From an uncultured Thermoanaerobaculum sp. (GTDB lineage Bacteria; Acidobacteriota; Thermoanaerobaculia; Thermoanaerobaculales; Thermoanaerobaculaceae), in contig CALHAH010000039.1 in assembly GCA_937934115.1 (NCBI GenBank), positions 1 through 53,763 on the forward strand: 53,763 bases of DNA, in the 5' to 3' direction. Position numbers and translations under genes: made by a program. The number at the start of each line of letters is the position of its first letter. Within the stretch, counting starts at the first letter, position 1. The notes under the pieces were generated by a model, which had not been told where the DNA came from, did no database searches, and worked only from the letters and a program-made list of their open reading frames with translations. Below are positions 26,962 through 38,911 of this stretch, piece after piece.

Positions 26962-26989
26962 TTGACAAAAAAAAAGCTTACCTTAACGT
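26962..26989 (+). promoter_or_regulatory. Predicted promoter of peptide cassette 1
   Basis: A perfect TTGACA at 26962-26967 is followed by an A8 run and, after 16 bp, TAACGT (26984-26989). An upstream-facing A-tract within the spacer may bend the DNA. The small peptide start is 44 bp downstream with AAAGGAGGGG before it. Confidence 0.55.
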
Positions 26990-27032
26990 TAGAGGTCCGG
27001 ACCCGGAACCGCTAGGAAAGGAGGGGTGAACG

Positions 27033-27231
27033 ATGATCGCAAAGACAAATCTTCAAGAAAGGATTAGTTGTAGGTGTCTTGCTCGTGGGCTTGCTGACTG
27101 CGACGCCAGCGCATGCCATCTCCGGCTACTGCATCACCACCGATGACGGCTGCAACTGGTCCATTTTTTGCCATTGGGATATTGATGACAATCTCAGCGT
27201 CGAAGTTCGCTTGGAGGGCTACAGGTGCTAA
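27033..27231 (+). pseudogene. Small Cys-rich secreted peptide, one-base frameshift
   Basis: ATG 27033 follows AAAGGAGGGG, but its frame drifts into a short, unlikely product. From 27055 another frame reads KKGLVVGVLLVGLLTATPAHA, a textbook signal peptide, then a 37-residue mature part with four Cys (ISGYC...GCNWSIFCHW...GYRC) ending at TAA 27229-27231. That frame has no start codon of its own. Removing one T from CTTC at 27051-27054 joins the two frames into a 65-residue precursor cleaved at Ala28|Ile29. It resembles the intact peptide at 36282, with the same cleavage place, mature Ile, and FCHW core. It may be a true mutation or a sequencing error. Confidence 0.65.
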
Positions 27232-27236
27232 AGTTC

Positions 27237-27264
27237 GGGGCGGGACGCCCGGCAGTCCCGCCCC
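27237..27264 (+). other. Perfect 10-bp stem-loop between peptide and partner gene
   Basis: GGGGCGGGAC (27237-27246) pairs perfectly with GTCCCGCCCC (27255-27264) around an 8-nt loop. No T-run follows; CATTCTTTGG leads to the partner's ribosome binding site. A stem in this place could protect an abundant peptide mRNA or reduce readthrough into the partner, as in some bacteriocin operons. Confidence 0.55.
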
Positions 27265-27281
27265 CATTCTTTGGAGGAATT

Positions 27282-28526
27282 ATGGTTTTTAAAGCCTTCA
27301 TTGGCCTTGCTGCGGTGCTTACGGCACCAGCACAGGAAAGCGGGGACATCCGCGTGGTCCACGCACCCTCGCCAGCCGCAGCTTTTCGTAAGCAGTTTCA
27401 GGAACCCCCCCGCTGCCTTGCCGTGCCCAAGGGCCTCTTTCATCCCCTTCCCCCTGACCTGGCGGCGCTTTTTTCTGGGGACGTTCGCCTTGCCGGGGCG
27501 GGGGAAAGCCTGGGGGTGCTGCGTCGTGAAAAAGATGACCACCTCCACTTGCTGATACTTCGTGGCGAGCGCGTAGCGCAAGAGTGGTACCTCAAACCGC
27601 CAGCCCCGTGGCAAGAAGCCAAGCTCCCGAAGTTGCAGCTCAGCGAAAACGGCCAATGGGTGGTCCTTATGACCTCCAAAGGTTTTGCGGTGTACGCCGG
27701 AAGCGAGCTGGTGCGGGTTTTGCAAGAGCCGGAACACGCCTTCGCCACCAGCGTTGCCGTTATGGGCGAGCAGGTCATCTGGTGCACAAAGCCACCCCAG
27801 GTCCCCAAGGACAACGAGCCCCCAACCCTTTGCTTCCAGCAAAGCTTGACCGCAGCCAAGCCCGAGCCCTTTTTGCAGGCCAACGCCCAAGTTTGGCAAG
27901 CCTTGATCAGGCAAGCCAAAGGTAACGTAGATCGTTTGGTCCTGTCTGAGCTACAAGTGCTCCTCACCCCCCGCCGCGATCGCAAGTTTTGGGCTTTGGG
28001 CCTACACACGGGCGAGCTCTTCCTTCTTGCCCGCAGCGGCACGGTGGCCAAACATTGGATTCTCCCTTGGGCCATAAAAGGGCTAGGCGAAAACCGGGAT
28101 CTTGTCAGCTGGGGCGAAGAGCAAATGCGGGCCAAGGTAGCTGAACATTTGGGGTCCAAGCTTTTTGACGCCACGAAGCCGCAGGCGGTAACGCCCGCAT
28201 CCCTTGCAGTTGCGAACTCCATCTTTTCGGCAGCCTTTTCCCGAGACAACGACTTGGTGGCCATGACCCACCCTGCCGCAGACCCCGCCAACGCTTTGTT
28301 TTGGATTGAAAACGATCCTCTAACCTCTCGCTGTTTTTTGCTCAAGGATTTTGAAGCGCAAATGACAGACCTGCCATTTTTGCAAGCTTTGCGAGTGGCC
28401 GTCACCCGCGACCGTCTCTGGTTGGCATCTCCTGCTGGCTACTTGGTTTGGGATGAACTATTGTCGTACTGGGAAGAAAGGCAAAAGTCTTCAGAAAAAA
28501 ATCCGGAGCATACCCAGTCCCGTTAA
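27282..28526 (+). CDS. Secreted partner protein of peptide cassette 1
   Basis: 414 residues from ATG 27282, with GGAGG 5 bp upstream. The signal peptide MVFKAFIGLAAVLTAPAQE predicts export. The mature protein is beta-rich with repeated short strands and turns (SENGQWVVLMTSKGFAVYAG, KFWALGLHTGELFLLARSG, DRLWLASPAGYLVW) of the kind seen in propeller blades, but no standard repeat could be fixed by eye. The closest structural guess is a 6-bladed propeller. It lies 50 bp after the small Cys-rich peptide gene. The gene at 36512 has the same position in a second cassette, with little obvious sequence identity. Function unknown. Confidence 0.65.
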   Translation: MVFKAFIGLAAVLTAPAQESGDIRVVHAPSPAAAFRKQFQEPPRCLAVPKGLFHPLPPDLAALFSGDVRLAGAGESLGVLRREKDDHLHLLILRGERVAQEWYLKPPAPWQEAKLPKLQLSENGQWVVLMTSKGFAVYAGSELVRVLQEPEHAFATSVAVMGEQVIWCTKPPQVPKDNEPPTLCFQQSLTAAKPEPFLQANAQVWQALIRQAKGNVDRLVLSELQVLLTPRRDRKFWALGLHTGELFLLARSGTVAKHWILPWAIKGLGENRDLVSWGEEQMRAKVAEHLGSKLFDATKPQAVTPASLAVANSIFSAAFSRDNDLVAMTHPAADPANALFWIENDPLTSRCFLLKDFEAQMTDLPFLQALRVAVTRDRLWLASPAGYLVWDELLSYWEERQKSSEKNPEHTQSR

Positions 28527-28653: not shown

Positions 28654-29885
28654 TCACCCCCGCATGGCGGCCACGGGGCTTACGCGGGAGGCTTGGCGGG
28701 CCGGCCAGAGGCCTGAGAAAAAGCCCACGGCCACCGCAAAAGCAAAGGCCAAGCCCGAAGGCGATGGGGGCAACCCCGCCTCGAAGGCACCGCTTGCTTG
28801 CTGCGTCACCAGCAAACCCAAAGCCACACCCTCCACCCCTCCCAAAAGCGAAAGCGACGTGGACTCGGCGAGCACCTGGAGGAGGATGGCCTGGTCTGAA
28901 GCCCCAATGGCCTTGCGCAAGCCAATTTCGTAAAGCCTTTCCGCCAAGGAAATGCGCAACACCGAGTAGATGCCCACGCCACCCACCAACAGCGAAATGC
29001 CCGCAATAGCTGCCAAAACAACGGTCCAGTTGCGGAGGATCACGCGTATTTCCTTTTCCGCCCGCAGCATTTCATCGGCCACATTTTCCACTTCGAATTC
29101 CTCAATGCCCTTGTGGGTGCGGCGAATGATCCTTTCGATTTCCGCTTTTACCGCCGCCAAGTTCTCCGTGTTATGGGTACGCACGGAAATCAAGTGTATG
29201 TTGTGGCCGCCGGAAAGGTGGGCACGGAACGCGGAAAGCGGCAGCAAAATCCCCTCCATTTCCCGCCGGGTCCAGCCGGAATTGGCAAAACGGTTTCCCA
29301 GGCGCTCTTCCACTCCAATCACTTGCAACGGCACATCACCCACCGTAACCATTTTGCCCACGGGGTTTTCATCGCCAAATAAAGCTGCGGCCAGCTCCGC
29401 CTTCAACACCGCCACCCGCCGTCCCGCTTCTTCGTCCCCGTCGTGGAAAAATCTGCCCTTCTGCCCCTTGCGCTCGTGCACATACACGTAGGAGGGGCTT
29501 CCCCGTACACCCGCACGCGCCTGGATACGCTTTCCGCGTGCACCACGCCATCGGTAAGCCGCACCGCCGCCACCGCCGCCAGGCTTTTACCTCCCTGCGC
29601 CAAAGCTTGGGAGTCCCTCAAGGCCAAACCCCGGCTTGGAAAGGCTTTCTTTTGTGCTAAAAGCGATTGGGGAGGCTTGCTGCTCACAAACATGACGCCA
29701 TCGAAGCCGAGACCCTTCACCCCGGACCACACCGCTTCCCGCACCCCAGCCCTGAGGGTCATGAACACCACCATGGCCGCGGTACCCAAGGTGACACCGG
29801 TTACGGTAAGCCCCGAGCGCAGCTTATGTGCCCCAATTTCCACCAACGCTGAGCGCACGCTTTCGGAAAGGGAAAGCCGCATCAT
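28654..29885 (-). pseudogene. MacB-like ABC transporter permease, frameshifted
   Basis: Start ATG 29885 overlaps the upstream permease (ATGA). The first frame holds the N-terminal membrane helix (KLRSGLTVTGVTLGTAAMVVFM) and part of the periplasmic domain. It then derails at about 29490, after VRVYGEAP, into a nonsense tail. The second frame resumes with YVYVHERKGQKGRFF and continues with the rest of the periplasmic domain and three C-terminal helices (VVLAAIAGISLLVGGVGIYSV, FtsX-type), ending near 28654. One missing T in GCCCCTCC (29490s) explains the break. The intact product would have been about 410 residues, like its neighbour. Confidence 0.8.
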
Positions 29886-31114
29886 TCGTACCTCAACGCC
29901 GCCACCGGCTGCAAACGGGCGGCCTTCCAGGCGGGGTACAAGTCAAAATTAACCGCCACGCTCACCGCACACCCCATGGCCGCGAGGACCATGGTTGGGG
30001 TGAGCACCGCCACTTGGTCCAAGAGGTAGGCCATGCCAACTACAAACCCCACACCTAAAGCTAAGCCAAAAAAACCACCAAGCCCGTTGACGATAATGGT
30101 TTCCACCAAAAACTGGATGAGAATGTGACTGCCTTTGGCCCCGATAGCTTTGCGGATGCCCACTTCCCGCATGCGCTCGGTAAATAAAGCCAGCATGATG
30201 TTGGCCACCACGATGCCTCCCACCAAAAGCGAAATGAGCCCGCAAACCAAAAAGGTGATGTCGTAAATCCGGCCTTGCTGCTCCATTTGCTCAACGCGGT
30301 CCTTGCCATCGAAAATCTGAAAATCCTCCGCCCCATGCCGGGCTAAAAGCAGGTTGCGCAGCGCCGGTAAAGCGCTGTGGTGAGCCTCAGGAGCAGCAAG
30401 CCGCAGGGCAATCTCATCGACTCGGCTGGTGCCAGCGCCTTGGTAACGGCGGGTCAGGGTAGTGGCTGGCACCAAGATAAGCTCGTTCATCCAACCCAGG
30501 GCGTTCCAGGAGTCGGCGCGGTTCCAGTAAAACTCGCGAAAGGCCAGCACCCCCACCACTATCAGCGCGTGGTCCCCAAGGCGCAAGGTCTTCCCCAGGG
30601 GATCGCCAGAGCCAAAAAACTCCCGGGCGCGGTCCGCACCTAGAACGCACACCGCCGCCGCGGTGGTGAGGTCCTCGAAAGTAATACGGCGCCCGCGGGC
30701 CAAACGCAGCTCGTTGCACTCGGCCCAACCTGGGGTCACCCCGGTGACCGTGTACCGCCGTTGCATCAACGGAGACGTCACCCAAAGGGGCCGACGAATG
30801 GCTGTTGCCACCAGATCAAACTGCGGAACCCTTAAAGCAATGGCTTGCGCATCCTCCAGGGTGAGGCCTTTGCTTGCCCTCTCCTTAGCGGAAAGGCGGG
30901 CAGCATCCGCGGGTTTGGCGTAAACCACAACCTTGAGGGTCCCCCCGGTTTCCTGCCAAAACTCCATGGACTTGGCGCGCTGCCCTGCCGAAAGGCCCAG
31001 GGTGGCCACCACCGAGGCCACACCCAAAACCACACCCACGGTTTGCAGCGCCGTGCGTGCCCCGTAGGCGCGCACATCCACCAAAGCATGCGCAAGGATC
31101 CCCAAGACGCTCAC
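29882..31114 (-). CDS. MacB/FtsX-type ABC transporter permease
   Basis: 410 residues. An N-terminal membrane helix (about 17-40) is followed by a large periplasmic MacB_PCD domain (about 45-260) and three C-terminal helices in the FtsX domain (ITFLVCGLISLLVGGIVVANI, then IREVGIRKAIGAKGSHIL). Such permeases pair with a MacB ATPase and a MacA adaptor to move peptides, lipoproteins or antibiotics across the envelope. This is the only unbroken gene of the four-gene operon. It overlaps its neighbours on both sides by 4 bp. Confidence 0.85.
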   Translation of the reverse strand: MSVLGILAHALVDVRAYGARTALQTVGVVLGVASVVATLGLSAGQRAKSMEFWQETGGTLKVVVYAKPADAARLSAKERASKGLTLEDAQAIALRVPQFDLVATAIRRPLWVTSPLMQRRYTVTGVTPGWAECNELRLARGRRITFEDLTTAAAVCVLGADRAREFFGSGDPLGKTLRLGDHALIVVGVLAFREFYWNRADSWNALGWMNELILVPATTLTRRYQGAGTSRVDEIALRLAAPEAHHSALPALRNLLLARHGAEDFQIFDGKDRVEQMEQQGRIYDITFLVCGLISLLVGGIVVANIMLALFTERMREVGIRKAIGAKGSHILIQFLVETIIVNGLGGFFGLALGVGFVVGMAYLLDQVAVLTPTMVLAAMGCAVSVAVNFDLYPAWKAARLQPVAALRYE

Positions 31115-31797
31115 GCTTGGCTCCGTTGGTCTAAGGCAATGCGCCCATCCACCAAACGCACCATGCGGCGCGCGTGGGCCGCCACCTGCGGGTCGTGAGT
31201 TACAAGAATCACCGTTTGCCCTTGGGCATTAATTTCGTCAAAAAACGCCATGACCTCTGCACCCGTGGTTTGGTCCAGGTTCCCCGTGGGCTCATCAGCC
31301 AAAAGCACCGCGGGTTACGTCACCAACGCGCGAGCAATGGCTGCCCGCTGGCGCTCGCCTCCTGAAAGCTGCGCAGGGTAGTGCTTGGCCCGGTCGGCAA
31401 GCCCCAAGCGGGCCAGGATGGCCAACGCCCTTTCCCGCCTTTCGCCCCGTGGCACGCCCGCGTAAAGTAGAGCAAGTTCCACGTTGCGCAGGATCGAGGC
31501 GCGGGGAAGCAGGTTAAACGCTTGAAAAACGAAACCCACAAAGCGGTTGCGAATTTCCGCCAAGCGACCGGGGGGGAGGTTCCCAACCTCCTCCCCCGCC
31601 AAGCGGTACGACCCGCTGGTGGGGTTGTCCAAACAACCCAAAATATGCATGAGTGTAGACTTCCCCGATCCGGAAGGCCCCATGATGGCCACGTACTCGC
31701 CGCGGTTCACTTGCAGGTCCACGCCTCGCAAGGCCTGAACTTCCACACCGCCGTTGTAAACTTTTCAAATCCCCGAAAGCTCAATGAGCGGGTCCAT
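31111..31797 (-). pseudogene. MacB-type ABC ATPase with two in-frame stops
   Basis: From ATG 31797 the frame reads MDPLIELSGI, then TGA (31765-31767), then [17 protein letters not shown]. This is the normal ATPase start with one codon, probably CGA, turned into a stop. The Walker A (GPSGSGKST), Q-loop (FQAFNLL) and signature ([16 protein letters not shown]) are intact. A second stop, TAA at 31315-31317, then precedes Walker B (PAVLLADEPTGNLD) and the H-loop His (VTHD). Both could be C-to-T changes. No fragment has all catalytic motifs, so no working transporter can come from this gene. Confidence 0.88.
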
Positions 31798-33161: not shown

Positions 33162-34532
33162 ATGCACCGGACCTTGCCTTGCACCGCCCTTTTGCTTGTA
33201 GTTATGGCCATAAATGCCGTCGCGCAGGAGAGACCAAAGGCTGGTGACGACGCTTTAGGCGCCTATCCTTACGAAAAGTTCGAACGCCCGCAAGCGTGCG
33301 CTTCGTGCCACGTAGACATTGCCCGCCAGCACGAACAATCCATGATGGCCCAGGCTTTTACCCATCACTGGGACGAAATTGAATACTTTGAGCTGGCCCT
33401 TCCCCACGCAGAAAAAGAACCCAAAGTCGCTGGCGTGAAAGCGGGCTGCAACGGTTGCCACGCACCCTTTTCCTTCCTGGCGGGAGACATCCCCCCCAAA
33501 CGGCCGCAGGAGAACACCAGGGCTAACGAGGGTGTGTCCTGTGATTTATGCCACACCATAACGGGCTACGCCGGCGACACACCGTTTAACTACAACTACG
33601 TCGTTTCTCCAGGCAAAGTAAAGTACGGGCCGCGCCCCGGCCTGGTGAGCCCCCACCACGAAACCAAAGAATCAGCCTTTTTGCGCTCCGCGGAATTTTG
33701 CGGTACGTGCCACAACGAAAAGAGCCCCTTTGACGTGTGGGTGAAGGCCACACATTTGGAGTGGAAGGAAAGCCCCTATGGTAAAGCTGGCATCGTTTGC
33801 CAGGACTGCCATATGCCCAAAGCCCCTGGTCGCTCAGCGCGTATGGGCGAGGAGCTGCCGGATGTGCGGCAACACCTGTTCCACGGCGCCCATGACCCTG
33901 GCAAGTTGGCCGGCGTCGTTGAAGTTCGCATCCACCCCGAGGTGCGCGAAGCGGAACCTGGAGAAACCGTGAAACTTACGGCTACGGTGGTCAACGCCAA
34001 AGCGGGGCATAAGGTTCCTTCTGGTTCAGCAGAAGAGCGCATGCTGTGGCTGCACGTGGTAGCCACCGACAGTAAGGGCAACGTGTACCACCTACCCGTG
34101 GATCGCAAGGGGTTTACCGGCGAGGAGTACACGATCGCCTCCGCCACCGCCCTCGCCTACCAGGATATCGGGGACATCAAGGGGATCCCCAACTTCCCAG
34201 GGCTTTTGCGGGATGGTAAGTACCCCCACCTGGCTCCGGGGGATCGCATCTTCCGCATGCCTTACTTTGATCCCAAGGGAAGACAAACCATTGCTCAGTG
34301 GAATACCGCTTCTTTAGGTACTGACTACCGCCTGGCGCCTCTGGCAGCAATAAACGAGACATTCACCTTTAAGCTTCCCCCAAACACCCCGCCAGGACCC
34401 GTCAAGGTTAAAGCATCCGTTTACTACTCGCGCTTGGTTTCCTCCGTGGCTGAGTTCCTCAAGGTACCGCCAGAGGAAAGTGAAGAAATCCTCATTAACA
34501 GCCACGAAACACAAATTATGGTCGTGCCGTAG
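33162..34532 (+). CDS. Secreted pentaheme c-type cytochrome
   Basis: 456 residues with a signal peptide (MHRTLPCTALLLVVMAINAVAQ). Five CXXCH heme-binding motifs lie in the first half at residues 46-50, 96-100, 127-131, 180-184 and 213-217, and several free His could be axial ligands. The spacing recalls cytochrome c554-type multiheme proteins. The second half (about 240-456) has no hemes and looks all-beta (VEVRIHPEVREAEPGETVKLTATVVNAKAGHKVPSG), a probable partner or sugar-like binding domain. It should carry electrons in the periplasm. The next gene, 22 bp away, is an outer-membrane barrel with one heme motif. Confidence 0.88.
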   Translation: MHRTLPCTALLLVVMAINAVAQERPKAGDDALGAYPYEKFERPQACASCHVDIARQHEQSMMAQAFTHHWDEIEYFELALPHAEKEPKVAGVKAGCNGCHAPFSFLAGDIPPKRPQENTRANEGVSCDLCHTITGYAGDTPFNYNYVVSPGKVKYGPRPGLVSPHHETKESAFLRSAEFCGTCHNEKSPFDVWVKATHLEWKESPYGKAGIVCQDCHMPKAPGRSARMGEELPDVRQHLFHGAHDPGKLAGVVEVRIHPEVREAEPGETVKLTATVVNAKAGHKVPSGSAEERMLWLHVVATDSKGNVYHLPVDRKGFTGEEYTIASATALAYQDIGDIKGIPNFPGLLRDGKYPHLAPGDRIFRMPYFDPKGRQTIAQWNTASLGTDYRLAPLAAINETFTFKLPPNTPPGPVKVKASVYYSRLVSSVAEFLKVPPEESEEILINSHETQIMVVP

Positions 34533-34554
34533 CGCAAGACCAAAGGAGGTCGCT

Positions 34555-35727
34555 GTGGTTGGCCCCACCCTTTGCGTTACCTTTGCAGCTGGTGTCTTGG
34601 CTCTCGCCGTCGCGGCCCCCAGCCACGCCATCCCCGCCTTCGCCCGCAAGTACCAGTTCTCCTGCTCCACCTGCCATGCCCCTTTTCCTCGCCTCAAGCC
34701 TTACGGCGAGGAGTTTGCCGCTCGCGGCTTTCGTTTGGAGGACCCCAGCCAAGAACCGAGCCGTGCCACGTACGACGTGGGGGACCCGTGGCTCCAGCTT
34801 CCCCGCGAGTTTCCCCTATCCCTGCGTCTGGACGGCTACGCCGCGCTGCTGGACTCCCGCGGCGAACCCAAAACCACCGATGTGCAGTGGCCATGGGCCG
34901 TGAAGCTGCTTTCCGGCGGGCAAATCTCCAAAAACATCTCCTACTACGCCTACGGCATTTTGGAAAAAGGCGAAACCATTAAGCTGGAGGATACCTGGGT
35001 TCAATGCAACTCGATTTTTGGCGCCCCGGTAGACGTAATGGTGGGGCAATTTCAGGTTTCCGACCCGCTTTTTAAGCGAGAACTTCGGCTCTCGCGCAAC
35101 GATTACGCCATCTTTAAGCTCAAGGTGGGGCACTCTCCCACCAACCTCACCTACGACCGCGGCTTGGTGCTCACCTGGCACGCACCAGCGGAATTTGAGG
35201 TGGTAGGGCAAATCGTCAACGGCAACGGCATTGCGGCAGCGGAGGAGAACTTCGACGACAATCGCTTTAAGTCGGCTAGCCTACGCCTCGTCCGGAGTTT
35301 TGGGCCCGTGCGCTTGGGGGTTTTCGGCTACCGCGGCCAGTCTGGACCCAACCAGGGGCCCAAGGACAGGATCACCTACCTGGGGCCCGACCTGGTGGCC
35401 GACCTGGGGGAGCGTTGGCAGCTTTCCCTTTGCTACCTCCGGCGCAGCGATGGTGACCCTTTTTTGCTGGGCCGGCATGGAGCTCCACTGGTAACCAAAG
35501 GGGGATTCCTTGAGCTCCACTTCTTCCCCCAAGGTCAGGATGGCCGTTGGGCGCTTACCTTTCTTGCCAACCGCGTCACCTCGGACGTACCAAATACCGA
35601 GGAGAAAAACACCTCCATCACTTTTAACTACCTAATGGCTCGAAACTTTCGGCTGCAAATTGAGCTGTTGCGGGATGAAGTGCGCGACCAAAACCAGCTG
35701 GCGGTGGGTTTGGTGACGGCGTTTTAA
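34555..35727 (+). CDS. Outer-membrane beta-barrel with an N-terminal c-heme motif
   Basis: 390 residues from GTG 34555, behind AAAGGAGGT. A signal peptide ends at about SHA25. CSTCH at 37-41 then lies in the pattern AFARKYQFSCSTCHAPFPRLKPYGEEFAARGF; similar openings occur in uncharacterised outer-membrane proteins of several phyla. The rest is a run of amphipathic strands with a terminal Phe (LAVGLVTAF), the usual outer-membrane insertion signal. A heme near the mouth of a barrel encoded beside a pentaheme cytochrome suggests an electron route across the outer membrane. That role is inferred, not shown. Confidence 0.8.
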   Translation: MVGPTLCVTFAAGVLALAVAAPSHAIPAFARKYQFSCSTCHAPFPRLKPYGEEFAARGFRLEDPSQEPSRATYDVGDPWLQLPREFPLSLRLDGYAALLDSRGEPKTTDVQWPWAVKLLSGGQISKNISYYAYGILEKGETIKLEDTWVQCNSIFGAPVDVMVGQFQVSDPLFKRELRLSRNDYAIFKLKVGHSPTNLTYDRGLVLTWHAPAEFEVVGQIVNGNGIAAAEENFDDNRFKSASLRLVRSFGPVRLGVFGYRGQSGPNQGPKDRITYLGPDLVADLGERWQLSLCYLRRSDGDPFLLGRHGAPLVTKGGFLELHFFPQGQDGRWALTFLANRVTSDVPNTEEKNTSITFNYLMARNFRLQIELLRDEVRDQNQLAVGLVTAF

Positions 35728-35770: not shown

Positions 35771-36060
35771 TCAGTTGCCGCCGCGTTCCGCAAACCTCTC
35801 CAGCCGGGCTTGGCGCAAAGCTGCCAACGCCCGGCCGAGTTTTTGCTGCGGCACAAAAAGGTAAAGCCCTTGCACTGGAAAACCCCAAGCTGGGGCCGTA
35901 AGCTGGGCGGCACCGGAAAGAGCTTTCGCCAAAAGCCCAAGCCAAGCGCGCGTCGTTGTTCGTAACCTCCAGTACGGGCTTGTTGGCTTCAAAGCAAACT
36001 TGGATAAGGGCAGGCTTCGGGCATGGCGGCCATTGCCTGTTTTCAAGCATGAGGCAGCAG
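35771..36060 (-). pseudogene. Frameshifted paralogue of the 37605 gene
   Basis: On the minus strand one frame gives FEANKPVLEVTNNDARLA. After a slip near 35940 the next frame gives LLAKALSGAAQLTAPAW followed by GLYLFVPQQKLGRALAALRQ and a short end. Both parts align with the second half of the intact gene at 37605-38012 (NAPFANSELLAAASSALAEV...). The last 28 codons are identical at DNA level (84 bp), while the parts before differ strongly. The N-terminal half is unrecognisable. It is a dead or dying duplicate. Confidence 0.7.
35790..35873. repeat. 84-bp direct repeat, copy 1
   Basis: Identical, base for base, to 37627-37710 in the same orientation. It codes (minus strand) for the C-terminal end of the 37605-family protein. 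The two copies bracket the second peptide cassette (36282-37618). The identity ends abruptly on both sides, which suggests gene conversion or a recombination junction. Confidence 0.9.
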
Positions 36061-36281
36061 GTGAGGGTACAGCTCACCCTTCCACACATGTACACAGCAG
36101 GTAAGGCCAAAAGTGCGCAACATGTCCTCAACCTAAAGCTTTTCGCACTTCCAGGCCCGCGCGGTGCCGTATCCCCTTGCCCACCACAGACTCGCCGTTT
36201 CGCGGAAGGGGAGCTTGACAGGAGAGAGAGAGAATCGCCCACCAAGGGCCGATAGGTGGCTCACGAAAGGAGGATCAAAAG

Positions 36282-36515
36282 ATGAACGCCTTCGCCAAAC
36301 GCTTCATGCTAATCGTGGTTCTCGCAGCCACTCTTTCCCTGGCCGTGGTTGGGTCGGCGCAGGCCATTTGGTGCGAGATCCTCAGGCTTCCCGACATGTC
36401 CTGCGTCTTCTGCCATCGTTGGACTAAGATAGGAGCTGAAACCTGCGACCTGTGGGAGGGGTGGTGCTCGGACGGGTGGTACGACAATGGCTGGTACTGT
36501 TGGGGCCAACTATGA
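36282..36515 (+). CDS. Small Cys-rich secreted peptide, cassette 2
   Basis: A 77-residue precursor, with AAGGAGG before ATG. A strong signal peptide (residues 1-28, ending GSAQA) leaves a 49-residue mature peptide that starts with Ile and has six Cys (31, 41, 44, 55, 62, 73) and many Trp. Cys41-His45 read CVFCH, a c-heme motif, inside an FCHRW core that resembles FCHW of the broken peptide at 27033. Options are disulfide-rich peptide, small monoheme cytochrome, or a modified natural product; the sequence alone does not decide. Its stop overlaps the start of the partner gene (ATGA). A TTGACA at 36215-36220 may be its -35, but no clear -10 is visible. Confidence 0.75.
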   Translation: MNAFAKRFMLIVVLAATLSLAVVGSAQAIWCEILRLPDMSCVFCHRWTKIGAETCDLWEGWCSDGWYDNGWYCWGQL

Positions 36516-37618
36516 AACATGGGTGCCGCGCGTGTGTTGTGCTGCTCGCCATAATCAGCGGCGTGGCGTGGGGACGTGGCTTCCTCGCTGAACGCAGGTT
36601 TCCCCCCGAAACCCTTTTTGCCTCTTCGGGTCACGGTACCTTGCTCACCGTGCAAGGAAATGTTCTGGAGCTTTGGAGTGAGGCCGGTAAACTGATACGT
36701 TCATGCGAAATTACGGATCCCCGCTTGCAGGGTTCACGCAACAGCGTGGCCTTGCACGGGGATTTAGCGCTTTTGAGTTTCCTGGAGCCCGAAGCTGGAA
36801 AAGAAGAAAACCGCAAGCTTGTTTTGGTCAACCTCCAGGACTGTCGCGTCGTTTCTTCTTTTTCACTCCCGGGCGTGGTGTTGGGCGTAAGGGGCAGTCC
36901 TTTGGGGTGGCTGACGGTGAGCCGCGGCGTGGGCAGCCCATCGTATGAATTTTCTTTAGTGGATAACGACGGCCAGCTTCTGGCTTCTTACGTTTTCCCT
37001 AAGGAACTGGCCGCGAGTCTCGGTTCGCGCGGTTTACCCTTAGGCCCTGCCCACCTCGTCACCCTCCGAGATCACGTCTTCATGGTGCCCCAAACAACCT
37101 ATGAGCTTTGGGCCCCGGCGCAAAAAAGCCGCCCCGCACGCAAGCTACCCGTGCCTGAATGTCTTTACCTCGAAGGCCAGTGGCTTTCCGGCGAGGCATC
37201 AGAACGAGAACTCCGCCGGCGCATGGCCTACGCCAGCGAAGAAACCCGCCGCATCATTGAGGAATTTTTACAAAAGGGGGGATCCCACCGAGGGTTTATG
37301 GCAGCGGTCCGCGGTATTTCCCCTTATCGTCACCGCTTGGCGGTTCTCCTTCGTGACCCCACAGTGGCCAGCAGCTGCCGCCTGGATATTTGGGATTTGG
37401 TCTTAGAGGCTCCCCTGCTGATCACCACCTTTGGCGAGAATCCATGCCCCGATCGCTTTTTTGCGTTGGTTAGCGACGGCCTTTGGGTTTTCCGGGAAGA
37501 TCGCTTGGTGAAAGTTCCCCTGGCCATTGCAGAGGAGCCTCTAGCCTGCCCCTGCGAGCTTTTGCGAACGTTGCGGGGCCAAGGGAACACCAGCTGGGAA
37601 AAACCTACGAAGCCGTAA
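36512..37618 (+). CDS. Secreted partner protein of peptide cassette 2
   Basis: 368 residues from ATG 36512, overlapping the peptide's stop and so translationally coupled to it. It has a signal-like N-terminus (CRACVVLLAIISGVAWG). The mature part has short beta repeats of propeller type (GTLLTVQGNVLELWSEAGKL, RKLVLVNLQDCRVVSSFSLP, DHVFMVPQTTYELWAP, GLWVFREDRLVKVPL). Several Cys (for example CEIT, DCRV, PECL, SCRL, NPCP) might form disulfides with the peptide. I do not recognise a named family. It has the same place and size class as the partner at 27282. It ends overlapping the convergent 37605 gene by 14 bp. Confidence 0.65.
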   Translation: MKHGCRACVVLLAIISGVAWGRGFLAERRFPPETLFASSGHGTLLTVQGNVLELWSEAGKLIRSCEITDPRLQGSRNSVALHGDLALLSFLEPEAGKEENRKLVLVNLQDCRVVSSFSLPGVVLGVRGSPLGWLTVSRGVGSPSYEFSLVDNDGQLLASYVFPKELAASLGSRGLPLGPAHLVTLRDHVFMVPQTTYELWAPAQKSRPARKLPVPECLYLEGQWLSGEASERELRRRMAYASEETRRIIEEFLQKGGSHRGFMAAVRGISPYRHRLAVLLRDPTVASSCRLDIWDLVLEAPLLITTFGENPCPDRFFALVSDGLWVFREDRLVKVPLAIAEEPLACPCELLRTLRGQGNTSWEKPTKP

Positions 37619-38012
37619 CGTCCCGAGCAAACCTCTCCAGCCGGGCTTGGCGCAAAGCTGCCAACGCCCGGCCGAGTTTTTGCTGCGGCACAAAAAGGTA
37701 AAGCCCTTGCGTTCGAGACCAAGCCAAAACCGGAACCTCCACCTCTGCCAAAGCTGAACTAGCGGCGGCCAAAAGCTCGGAGTTGGCAAAGGGGGCATTT
37801 ACCGCCACCCGCCTCCAGCCGTCAGCCGCCACGGTGGCTTTTGGCGGAAGCTGGCCTACTGCTGACTGAGGGACGAGGAAGGCCCGTTCCTCCAGCGGGT
37901 AGCACCCCTGGGAGAGGAGGGCTGCCGGAAGCGTGTCGCCTTCGGTGAGGAAAACCAGCGAGTAGCTCTCCGGCGACACGAAAAGAACGTGCCCGCTGGC
38001 TGATGCAAGCAT
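37605..38012 (-). CDS. Conserved-looking protein of unknown function
   Basis: About 135 residues from ATG 38012, 20 bp after the M23 peptidase stop, behind TTGGAG at a longish spacing. A longer frame (to 38087) would overlap the peptidase. The sequence GHVLFVSPESYSLVFLTEGD and the helical end GRALAALRQARLERFARD do not fit a family I know. A frameshifted paralogue lies at 35771-36060 and shares its last 84 bp exactly. The gene probably shares a transcript with the M23 peptidase. Confidence 0.55.
   Translation of the reverse strand: MLASASGHVLFVSPESYSLVFLTEGDTLPAALLSQGCYPLEERAFLVPQSAVGQLPPKATVAADGWRRVAVNAPFANSELLAAASSALAEVEVPVLAWSRTQGLYLFVPQQKLGRALAALRQARLERFARDVTAS
37627..37710. repeat. 84-bp direct repeat, copy 2
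   Basis: Identical to 35790-35873 and in the same orientation. This copy is the 3' end of the intact 37605 gene. Confidence 0.9.
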
Positions 38013-38032
38013 TGCGAAAACTCCAAAAAAAG

Positions 38033-38911
38033 TCAGTATGCGTCGAGGATGTAATGCAGGGGGTTTTGCTTTTCCCCGTCTTTCCACACCTCGTAGTGCA
38101 GATGCGGACCCGTAGTGCGCCCGCTCATGCCCACCCGCCCGATGACCTCACCGCGCTTCACCCGTTGCCCTTCCCTCACCAACACCCGGTCCAGGTGGGC
38201 GTAAATGGTGACAAAGCCGTAACCGTGGTTCAATTTCACCACTCGGCCATACCCAGCTTCCCGATCTGCAAACACCACCAAGCCGTCCGCCGGCGCCTTG
38301 ACCGGCGTACCAAAAGCGGCAGCAATATCCAGGCCACCGTGGAAAGCGGCTTGGCGGGTAATGGGGTCAATGCGCGGACCAAAACCGTCGGTGATGACAC
38401 CCACCACCGGTGCAATGGACGGGGTATGGGACAAGAGCAGTTGCTGCTCAGAAAGGCGCTGTTCCACCGCACCCAGTTGCCTCTCAAGGCGTTCCTCCCG
38501 CTGCAAGAGGTGTTCCGGGCCGCCGGTGAGCCGATCCAGCGGCCCACCAGTGCCTACGGACGTTTTTGCTGGCAACGCGGGAGCCACCAATGCATCCGCC
38601 ACCCCTGCAGCGATGGCCAGTTGCTTGGTTCGCTGTTCAAACTGCTCTAAGCGAGCGTGAACCTCGCCCAAGGCCTCCTGAAGCCGTTGGTTGGTCCGGC
38701 GAAGTTCTTTGTTTTCCTTTTCCAGGGATCGGTACAGAGCCCGTTGGCGCACGAAATTGCCGGAACCCAAGAGCGCCACCAAGGACAAAATCACCGCAAT
38801 GACGCCCAAACCGGCGGTGATCTTCAAAAGCGTTGGCGAGAGGTGGAATTTATAGACGCGCCCAGCAGCGTGGGGGATGATGACAATGGTGCTGTGGCGC
38901 TTGTGGTTCAC
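38033..38911 (-). CDS. M23 family murein endopeptidase with coiled coil
   Basis: 292 residues from GTG 38911, with GGAGGAGG upstream. A membrane anchor at about 35-55 (LGVIAVILSLVALLGSG) is followed by a coiled coil at about 60-150 (YRSLEKENKELRRTNQRLQEAL) and a LytM/M23 domain at about 170-290. The zinc ligands are in FHGGLDIAAA and HLHYEV, all present. It should cut peptide cross-links in peptidoglycan or act as an activator of amidases. A very good promoter lies upstream. Confidence 0.93.
   Translation of the reverse strand: MNHKRHSTIVIIPHAAGRVYKFHLSPTLLKITAGLGVIAVILSLVALLGSGNFVRQRALYRSLEKENKELRRTNQRLQEALGEVHARLEQFEQRTKQLAIAAGVADALVAPALPAKTSVGTGGPLDRLTGGPEHLLQREERLERQLGAVEQRLSEQQLLLSHTPSIAPVVGVITDGFGPRIDPITRQAAFHGGLDIAAAFGTPVKAPADGLVVFADREAGYGRVVKLNHGYGFVTIYAHLDRVLVREGQRVKRGEVIGRVGMSGRTTGPHLHYEVWKDGEKQNPLHYILDAY

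What the first reader, a model, noticed from the sequence alone, without database searches (positions are those of the whole stretch)
27033..28526. Secreted Cys-rich peptide plus secreted partner cassette, first copy
A 65-residue precursor (after undoing one base) is cleaved at Ala28|Ile29, giving a 4-Cys peptide with an FCHW core, and is followed by a 414-aa secreted partner. A second copy of the arrangement at 36282-37618 has the same cleavage position, mature Ile, FCH(R)W core, and a partner of similar size and strand pattern. Bacteroidetes NVEALA peptides beside 6-bladed-propeller proteins are the nearest known layout. I know of no described equivalent in this phylum, so this is the best candidate for a new system: a peptide with a dedicated outer partner, perhaps a signal, toxin, or modified product with its carrier.
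Basis: partly seen in the sequence, partly recalled or inferred. Interest (0 to 1): 0.75.

Follow-up and report, generated by a model that had tools for sequence, protein, structure and literature searches.

The report
Secreted cysteine-rich peptide–partner cassettes
This bacterium carries about eleven small genes for secreted cysteine-rich peptides, most followed by a gene for a dedicated secreted partner protein and most switched on from a promoter containing a mutation-prone run of A or GA; this looks like an undescribed family of rapidly changing, possibly switchable, extracellular peptides.

Summary
The pair is real and belongs to a larger family. Peptide 1 (27033-27231) needs a frame change inside its signal sequence. 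Peptide 2 (36282-36515) is intact. Both partners (414 and 368 aa) are predicted six-bladed NHL-type beta-propellers. They fall in two families not joined by BLASTP, so pair 2 is not a copy of pair 1, and the shared "FCH(R)W" core is not conserved. Further pairs occur in G001, G003, G005 and G007.

Nine of ten peptide genes first examined had TTGACA (one TTGAAA) upstream, mostly followed by an A- or GA-tract. Scanning 2.24 Mb (93%) of the genome for TTGACA plus such a tract gave 11 sites. Nine precede secreted Cys-rich peptide genes, six of them not used to frame the pattern. Fisher p=7e-12; out of sample p=4e-9. This raises the genome's count to 11 peptide genes, ten with a secreted partner. 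Peptide type goes with partner type. Near-identical promoter headers carry tracts A8, A9 and A10 above unrelated cargo. Cassettes are missing, replaced or strongly diverged at syntenic sites in the same genus.

Best reading: accessory peptide-plus-scaffold cassettes with slippage-prone promoters. Binding, switching and function are inferred. NVEALA membership was not supported.

The parts
26962..26975 (+). promoter element of pair 1: TTGACA running into a 9-A tract
26982..27032 (+). leader of pair 1 with a G+C-rich stem and Shine-Dalgarno-like AGGAAAGGAGG; part of a leader family that carries a hairpin in most copies
27033..27231 (+). peptide 1: signal peptide plus mature ISGYC...YRC (4 Cys); reading frame broken in the signal-peptide region in this contig
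27237..27264 (+). G+C-rich hairpin between peptide 1 and partner 1 (possible partial terminator giving more peptide than partner)
   Evidence: a similar hairpin follows the C15 peptide
27282..28526 (+). partner 1: 414 aa, signal-peptide-like N-terminus, predicted six-bladed beta-propeller (type I)
36215..36233 (+). promoter element of pair 2: TTGACAG followed by (GA)6; one of only two (GA)5+ runs in 2.24 Mb
36282..36515 (+). peptide 2: 77 aa precursor, mature IWCEIL...GWYCWGQL with 6 Cys (type II)
36512..37618 (+). partner 2: 368 aa, predicted six-bladed beta-propeller (type II); start overlaps the peptide 2 stop
35790..35873 (.). 84-bp direct repeat, copy 1, flanking pair 2
37627..37710 (.). 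84-bp direct repeat, copy 2 (100% identical), overlapping the 3' end of the minus-strand gene 37605-38087

Best explanation
The two window pairs are members of an accessory family of two-gene cassettes. Each typically has a promoter with a perfect or near -35 box (TTGACA) running into a slippage-prone A- or GA-tract, a leader that usually carries a G+C-rich hairpin, a Sec-exported disulfide-rich peptide, and a dedicated secreted partner. For types I and II the partner is a six-bladed beta-propeller. The most likely mechanism is that the peptide is exported, folds with disulfide bonds and is held outside the cytoplasm by its cognate partner, which acts as a binding scaffold; the promoter tract tunes or switches each cassette by changing the -35/-10 spacing; and gain, loss and header recombination keep the repertoire changing. 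Such a repertoire suits an extracellular ligand or antagonistic peptide under diversifying selection. Shown: the cassette family, the fold prediction, peptide-partner co-segregation, the shared tract promoter, and turnover between close relatives. Inferred: disulfide formation, binding, promoter switching, role.
For: Pairs: four propeller pairs in the genome and further pairs in G001, G003, G005 and G007. Co-segregation: 'CITT'-like peptides go with A4-type propellers, 'LWEGWCSDGW' peptides with A8-type propellers, and the C7 and C36-alpha pairs are related in both peptide (47-52%) and partner (41%). Fold: partner 1 pLDDT 74.5, Z 17.9 to Brat NHL and about 16 to designed six-bladed Pizza6; partner 2 pLDDT 86.8, Z 18.5 to Brat NHL; the partner-2 profile hits NHL/WD40 propellers in the PDB at E down to 1e-8. 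Promoter: 9 of 11 TTGACA+tract sites in 2.24 Mb precede secreted Cys-rich peptide genes, Fisher p=7e-12 on intact ORFs, out of sample 4e-9. Tract lengths differ (A8, A9, A10) between headers 95-98% identical over 55 nt. In C40 the tract fills an 18-nt TTGACA/TATGCT spacer. Four of the 13 A runs of 9 or more are these promoters. Turnover: empty, replaced or strongly diverged sites in same-genus genomes.
Against: No binding, secretion, expression or switching data exist. The genome is a draft assembly of unnamed origin; indels and tract lengths could partly be assembly errors. Conserved FtsX and ATPase genes next to pair 1 are also split in the window but intact in G001 and G002. A clear -10 box is seen only in C40. 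Some partners occur without a peptide (G007:C8, G000:C50) and one peptide (C30) without a partner. The C7 and G003 cassettes have TTGACA without a simple tract and G007:C248 has no TTGACA. Cys numbers after residue 28 are not always even.
Confidence: 0.55

Rival explanations
1. Bacteriocin-like antagonism: the peptide is a secreted Cys-rich toxin against close relatives and the downstream secreted protein is its immunity or neutralising protein.
For: Small, Cys-rich, exported, diverse even at a shared site (peptides about 34%, partners 25% identical while flanks are 82% at DNA level), accessory, and each peptide type has its own partner type.
Against: Partners are five to ten times larger than the peptides and exported, unlike most bacteriocin immunity proteins; no toxin, immunity or defence model matches; orphan partners and an orphan peptide exist.
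Confidence: 0.25
2. Surface or matrix display: peptide and partner are structural or adhesive components, the propellers and carboxypeptidase-regulatory-like proteins being scaffolds, as in switchable surface antigens.
For: Partners are propellers and CarboxypepD_reg proteins, common in extracellular binding and stalk proteins (general knowledge); tract promoters recall the (TA)n and A-tract promoters of Haemophilus pilin genes (PMC2651432).
Against: No lipobox, sortase or C-terminal sorting signal was seen by eye; no transport gene is consistently adjacent.
Confidence: 0.3
3. Member or analogue of the Bacteroidota NVEALA peptide plus six-bladed propeller arrangement, a peptide signal or modified product with its carrier.
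For: Same layout of a small exported Cys-containing peptide before a six-bladed propeller protein; the partner 1 model also aligns to a Bacteroides DUF4221 propeller (3s9j, Z 15.6).
Against: No NVEALA or other confident Pfam/NCBIfam match up to E 10; cleavage regions read TPAHA/SAQA, not NVEALA; no modifying enzyme was recognised beside the pairs; other cassettes use non-propeller partners.
Confidence: 0.1
4. The tracts are static spacers or the product of recent header duplication, with no switching; the cassettes are ordinary secreted gene pairs.
For: The C36 headers are recent duplicates (182 nt at 92%); C15, C7, G003 and G007 lack a typical tract; A5/A6 in the nspA promoter alters expression but was not found to phase-vary (PMC6389960).
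Against: Two unrelated tract types (A and GA) at the same place, in two genera; four of the 13 longest A runs and one of two (GA)5+ runs of the scanned genome sit here; tract length differs while flanking bases hardly do.
Confidence: 0.4
5. Haem or redox peptide: the CVFCH of peptide 2 is a c-type haem site.
For: Peptide 2 contains CVFCH and multihaem-like ORFs lie at 33162-35727 by eye.
Against: The closest relative has CAFCYH; none of the other cassette peptides examined has CXXCH.
Confidence: 0.02

Closest known systems
Bacteroidota NVEALA-type peptides beside six-bladed beta-propeller proteins
   Same: small exported Cys-containing peptide directly before a six-bladed propeller protein; partner 1 model aligns to DUF4221 propeller 3s9j (Z 15.6)
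   Different: no family-model match and no NVEALA motif; partner families unknown to Pfam and NCBIfam; cassettes also use non-propeller partners and share tract promoters
Simple-sequence contingency promoters such as Haemophilus influenzae hifA/hifB (TA)n and A-tract pilin promoters (PMC2651432)
   Same: mono- or dinucleotide tract proposed to alter the -35/-10 spacing upstream of exported products; several loci per genome
   Different: tract is A or GA immediately after TTGACA; cargo is a Cys-rich peptide plus a secreted partner; switching not shown here
NHL-type six-bladed beta-propellers (Brat, TRIM2/3, PknD extracellular domain, Pizza6)
   Same: predicted fold, Z 15-18
   Different: about 10% sequence identity, no Pfam NHL match, exported proteins with a helical insert
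CarboxypepD_reg (PF13620) proteins
   Same: partners of C36-beta, C36-gamma and C40 match above the gathering score
   Different: here they follow a Cys-rich peptide under the shared header; the window's own pairs do not use them

Membership tests
NVEALA peptide family | match to a curated peptide family model | tested here: not met
   Pfam and NCBIfam scans to E 10 gave no such match; relatives likewise
NVEALA peptide family | NVEALA motif at the processing site | tested here: not met
   the precursors read ..TATPAHA/ISG.. and ..VGSAQA/IWC..
NVEALA peptide family | adjacent six-bladed propeller gene | tested here: met
   AlphaFold2 models and structure matches
six-bladed NHL-type beta-propeller | propeller fold with NHL-like geometry | tested here: met
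   predicted models only; Z 17.9 and 18.5 to Brat NHL
six-bladed NHL-type beta-propeller | match to a curated Pfam propeller family | tested here: not met
   no gathering-level match in any member of A4 or A8; SGL at E 0.003 in one member only
phase-variable (contingency) promoter | simple-sequence tract between the -35 and -10 boxes | tested here: inconclusive
   tract directly follows TTGACA in 9 cassettes of this genome; a clear -10 (TATGCT, 18-nt spacer) is seen only in C40
phase-variable (contingency) promoter | tract length varies between otherwise near-identical copies | tested here: met
   A8, A9, A10 in headers 95-98% identical over 55 nt, and A7 in the related C36 first pair
phase-variable (contingency) promoter | reversible switching in a population | not testable with these tools
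   no reads or expression data
toxin-immunity / bacteriocin pair | known toxin, immunity or defence domain | tested here: not met
   Pfam, NCBIfam and PADLOC gave none
toxin-immunity / bacteriocin pair | killing activity neutralised by the partner | not testable with these tools
   needs bench work
c-type cytochrome | conserved CXXCH | tested here: not met
   CVFCH in peptide 2 but CAFCYH in its closest relative

The most novel reading that the evidence does not exclude
A genome-wide, phase-variable repertoire of secreted disulfide-rich peptides, each with a cognate extracellular scaffold (propeller or beta-sandwich protein), in which one slippage-prone promoter header drives interchangeable, non-homologous peptide-partner cargo: a switchable, modular peptide arsenal or recognition system in a lineage with no described equivalent.
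Probability: 0.3. Interest if true: 0.85.

Novelty: new variant of a known kind. Interest (0 to 1): 0.66.

Why it matters
The peptides match no curated family, and neither do the propeller and the 268-337 aa partners, yet together they form an accessory repertoire with a shared promoter signature by which further members can be found. If the tracts switch expression, this would put contingency-locus biology, known mainly from host-adapted pathogens, into a lineage where no such family is on record, and would give a tractable set of natural peptide-propeller pairs for studying how bacteria bind, display or deliver disulfide-rich peptides.

Tried and rejected
Family scans of peptides and partners against Pfam, NCBIfam and PADLOC gave no family for peptides, propellers or the unclassified partners. 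The weak DUF5818 hit of peptide 1 (E 0.0099, below cut-off) was not pursued. Partner-1 profile on a phylum sample of 396 genomes: hits only in the window's order. Partner-2 profile on the same sample: four weak partial hits outside the order (E 6e-5 to 7e-4) that look like generic propeller similarity. Peptide-profile search of the order: only the five sequences used to build it score strongly. Two genome-contig scans: none for partner 1, and only the record identical to G005 for peptide 2. Plasmid and phage tblastn: no match. Viral-contig scans could not start because the alignments lack conserved blocks. Haem-peptide idea dropped. Weak tblastn hits at L158, L140 and L144 were inspected and rejected as cassettes. 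Covariation of the leader hairpin was not claimed: the stem shifts register in beta and gamma.

Full report
THE OBSERVATION. Peptide 1 (27033-27231) has a good ribosome-binding site and an ATG, but in this contig the peptide frame carries a stop overlapping that ATG, so the frame changes somewhere between 27036 and 27051. Partner 1 is 27282-28526, 414 aa. Peptide 2 (36282-36515) is intact and its stop overlaps the start of partner 2 (36512-37618, 368 aa). Other genes on the contig are split too: an FtsX-like ORF (28654-29487 / 29403-29885) and an ABC ATPase (31111-31308 / 31315-31746), both intact in two same-genus genomes. The break in peptide 1 may therefore be a contig error or real decay; I cannot tell which.

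PAIRS ELSEWHERE. Partner 1 has paralogues in the same genome at C15 (E 2.5e-34) and C36 (E 8e-5), each preceded by a signal-peptide-bearing Cys-rich peptide. Profile searches found the type in G001, G003, G005, G007, G012 and G024, all within the window's order. G001, G003 and G005 show a peptide ahead of the partner; G012 and G024 end at a contig edge; G007:C8 has tandem partners without a peptide. A sample of 396 genomes of the phylum gave no partner-1 hit outside the order. Partner 2 has relatives in G005, G007, G012 and G026. G005:C20 and G007:C248 carry a peptide before it, and G005's peptide shares C.LWEGWCSDGW.D.GWYCW with peptide 2. Peptide 2 and partner 2 change most at third codon positions between genomes, as coding DNA does.

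TWO FAMILIES, ONE FOLD. Partners 1 and 2 do not align by BLASTP and only weakly and out of register by profile. AlphaFold2 models built on the families' own alignments (pLDDT 74.5 and 86.8) both match six-bladed NHL propellers, best Brat NHL (Z 17.9, 4.3 A over 261 residues; Z 18.5, 3.6 A over 245 residues). The partner-2 profile finds NHL and WD40 propellers in the PDB by sequence. The window pairs are thus two types with one partner fold, not two copies. FCH is not conserved in either type.

A SHARED PROMOTER LED TO THE REST OF THE FAMILY. Upstream of ten peptide genes from several genomes, eight have TTGACA and one TTGAAA at -50 to -86; in most it runs straight into an A-tract or a (GA)n tract. 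I then scanned 2.24 Mb of the 2.42 Mb genome (stretches fetched, plus the window). Of 505 TTGACA sites, 11 are followed by such a tract, and nine of these precede a secreted Cys-rich peptide gene (my reading of the hits). An automatic count on intact ORFs gives 7 of 11 against 2 of 494, p = 7e-12; the two missed are peptide 1 and C36-gamma, which have broken frames. Leaving out the three sites that had suggested the pattern, it is 5 of 8, p = 4e-9. The signal-peptide and Cys criteria are a crude rule of my own. One of the two hits without a tract, C7, is itself a family member; the other looks like a haem protein.

THE REPERTOIRE. Peptide genes in this genome: C39 (two, the window), C15, C36 (four), C19, C30, C40 and C7, eleven in all; ten have a secreted partner and C30 has none. 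Partners are propellers (four), CarboxypepD_reg proteins (C36-beta, C36-gamma, C40) and unclassified secreted proteins (C36-alpha, C7, C19). C7 and C36-alpha are related in both halves: peptides 47-52%, partners 41%. Together with types I and II this says that a peptide type keeps its partner type.

HEADERS. The three array cassettes on C36 (alpha, beta, gamma) share a 55-nt block at 95-98%, and gamma and alpha share 182 nt at 92%, above different cargo. Their A runs are 10, 9 and 8; the related header of the first C36 pair has 7. C40 has 14 A, which puts TTGACA 18 nt from TATGCT, a textbook sigma-70 spacing. In the fetched sequence there are only 13 A/T runs of nine or more, four of them in these promoters, several of the rest lying beside terminator-like hairpins; there are only two (GA)5+ runs, one being that of pair 2. 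This is the pattern expected if slippage is tolerated or selected here. Haemophilus hifA promoters give a precedent for (TA)n and A-tract spacers (PMC2651432). In Neisseria nspA a 5A/6A tract alters expression, but there it was neither a -35/-10 spacer nor shown to phase-vary (PMC6389960), so switching stays a hypothesis.

TURNOVER. With G001 and G002 of the same genus, flanks match at 71-82% DNA identity. The pair-1 site holds a different secreted gene pair in G001 and a short gap in G002; the pair-2 site is empty in both (11 bp and 418 bp); the site of the first C36 pair, beside a moaA-like gene, holds a strongly diverged pair in G001 (partners 25%, peptides 34%) and nothing in G002. Pair 2 lies between 84-bp perfect direct repeats. 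Broken members are common: peptide 1, the G001 peptide and C36-gamma (both with a stop near the signal-peptide end), and the C50 partner.

MECHANISM. Shown: the cassette family, the predicted folds, co-segregation, tract promoters and turnover. Inferred: disulfide bonding (mature Cys numbers are mostly, not always, even), a peptide-partner complex, unequal expression through the hairpin between peptide 1 and partner 1, and switching. I rate a physical peptide-partner complex at about 0.5, tract-dependent expression at about 0.6 and true phase variation at about 0.45. Between surface display and antagonism the data do not decide.

LIMITS. The genome is a draft of unnamed origin, 93% of it was scanned, and the promoter scan could not be repeated in other genomes. 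Indel errors could affect tract lengths and frames. Literature searches were few and limited to the held library.

Noticed in passing
window 35790-35873 and 37627-37710: 84-bp perfect direct repeat around pair 2; the second copy overlaps the 3' end of the minus-strand gene 37605-38087 and the first looks like a truncated paralogue of that gene's end.
   Followed up: partly
L111:2238-3888 (G001, site of pair 1): A different secreted gene pair sits here: a 232-aa protein resembling a C39-like cysteine peptidase by eye, and a secreted protein of about 340 aa.
   Followed up: no
L013:669-893 and L134:10226-10504 (minus strand): Two peptide genes carry an in-frame TAA close to the signal-peptide/mature boundary, in different genomes; decay or coincidence, not explained.
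   Followed up: partly
window 28654-29885 and 31111-31746: FtsX-like permease and ABC ATPase ORFs are split by frame changes, while G001 and G002 have intact versions.
   Followed up: yes
L228:425-460 (G000:C45): TTGACA followed by a T10 tract upstream of a secreted protein with a Cys-rich N-terminus and a glycoside-hydrolase-like body, itself followed by another secreted ORF: possibly a further tract-promoter cassette missed by the A/GA scan.
   Followed up: partly
G000:C50:21921-22767 (L005, L018-L020): Frame-broken relative of partner 1 with no peptide upstream, next to a purB-like gene.
   Followed up: partly
L088:2283-2606 (G005:C30): 108-aa Cys-rich exported peptide under TTGACA(AG)11, downstream of a partner-2-type fragment and followed by a large secreted ORF.
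   Followed up: partly
L035 (G007:C8) and L073 (G012:C382): Two propeller-type partner genes in tandem without a recognisable peptide gene.
   Followed up: partly
window 33162-35727: Two exported ORFs with CXXCH motifs (multihaem-like by eye) between the two pairs.
   Followed up: no
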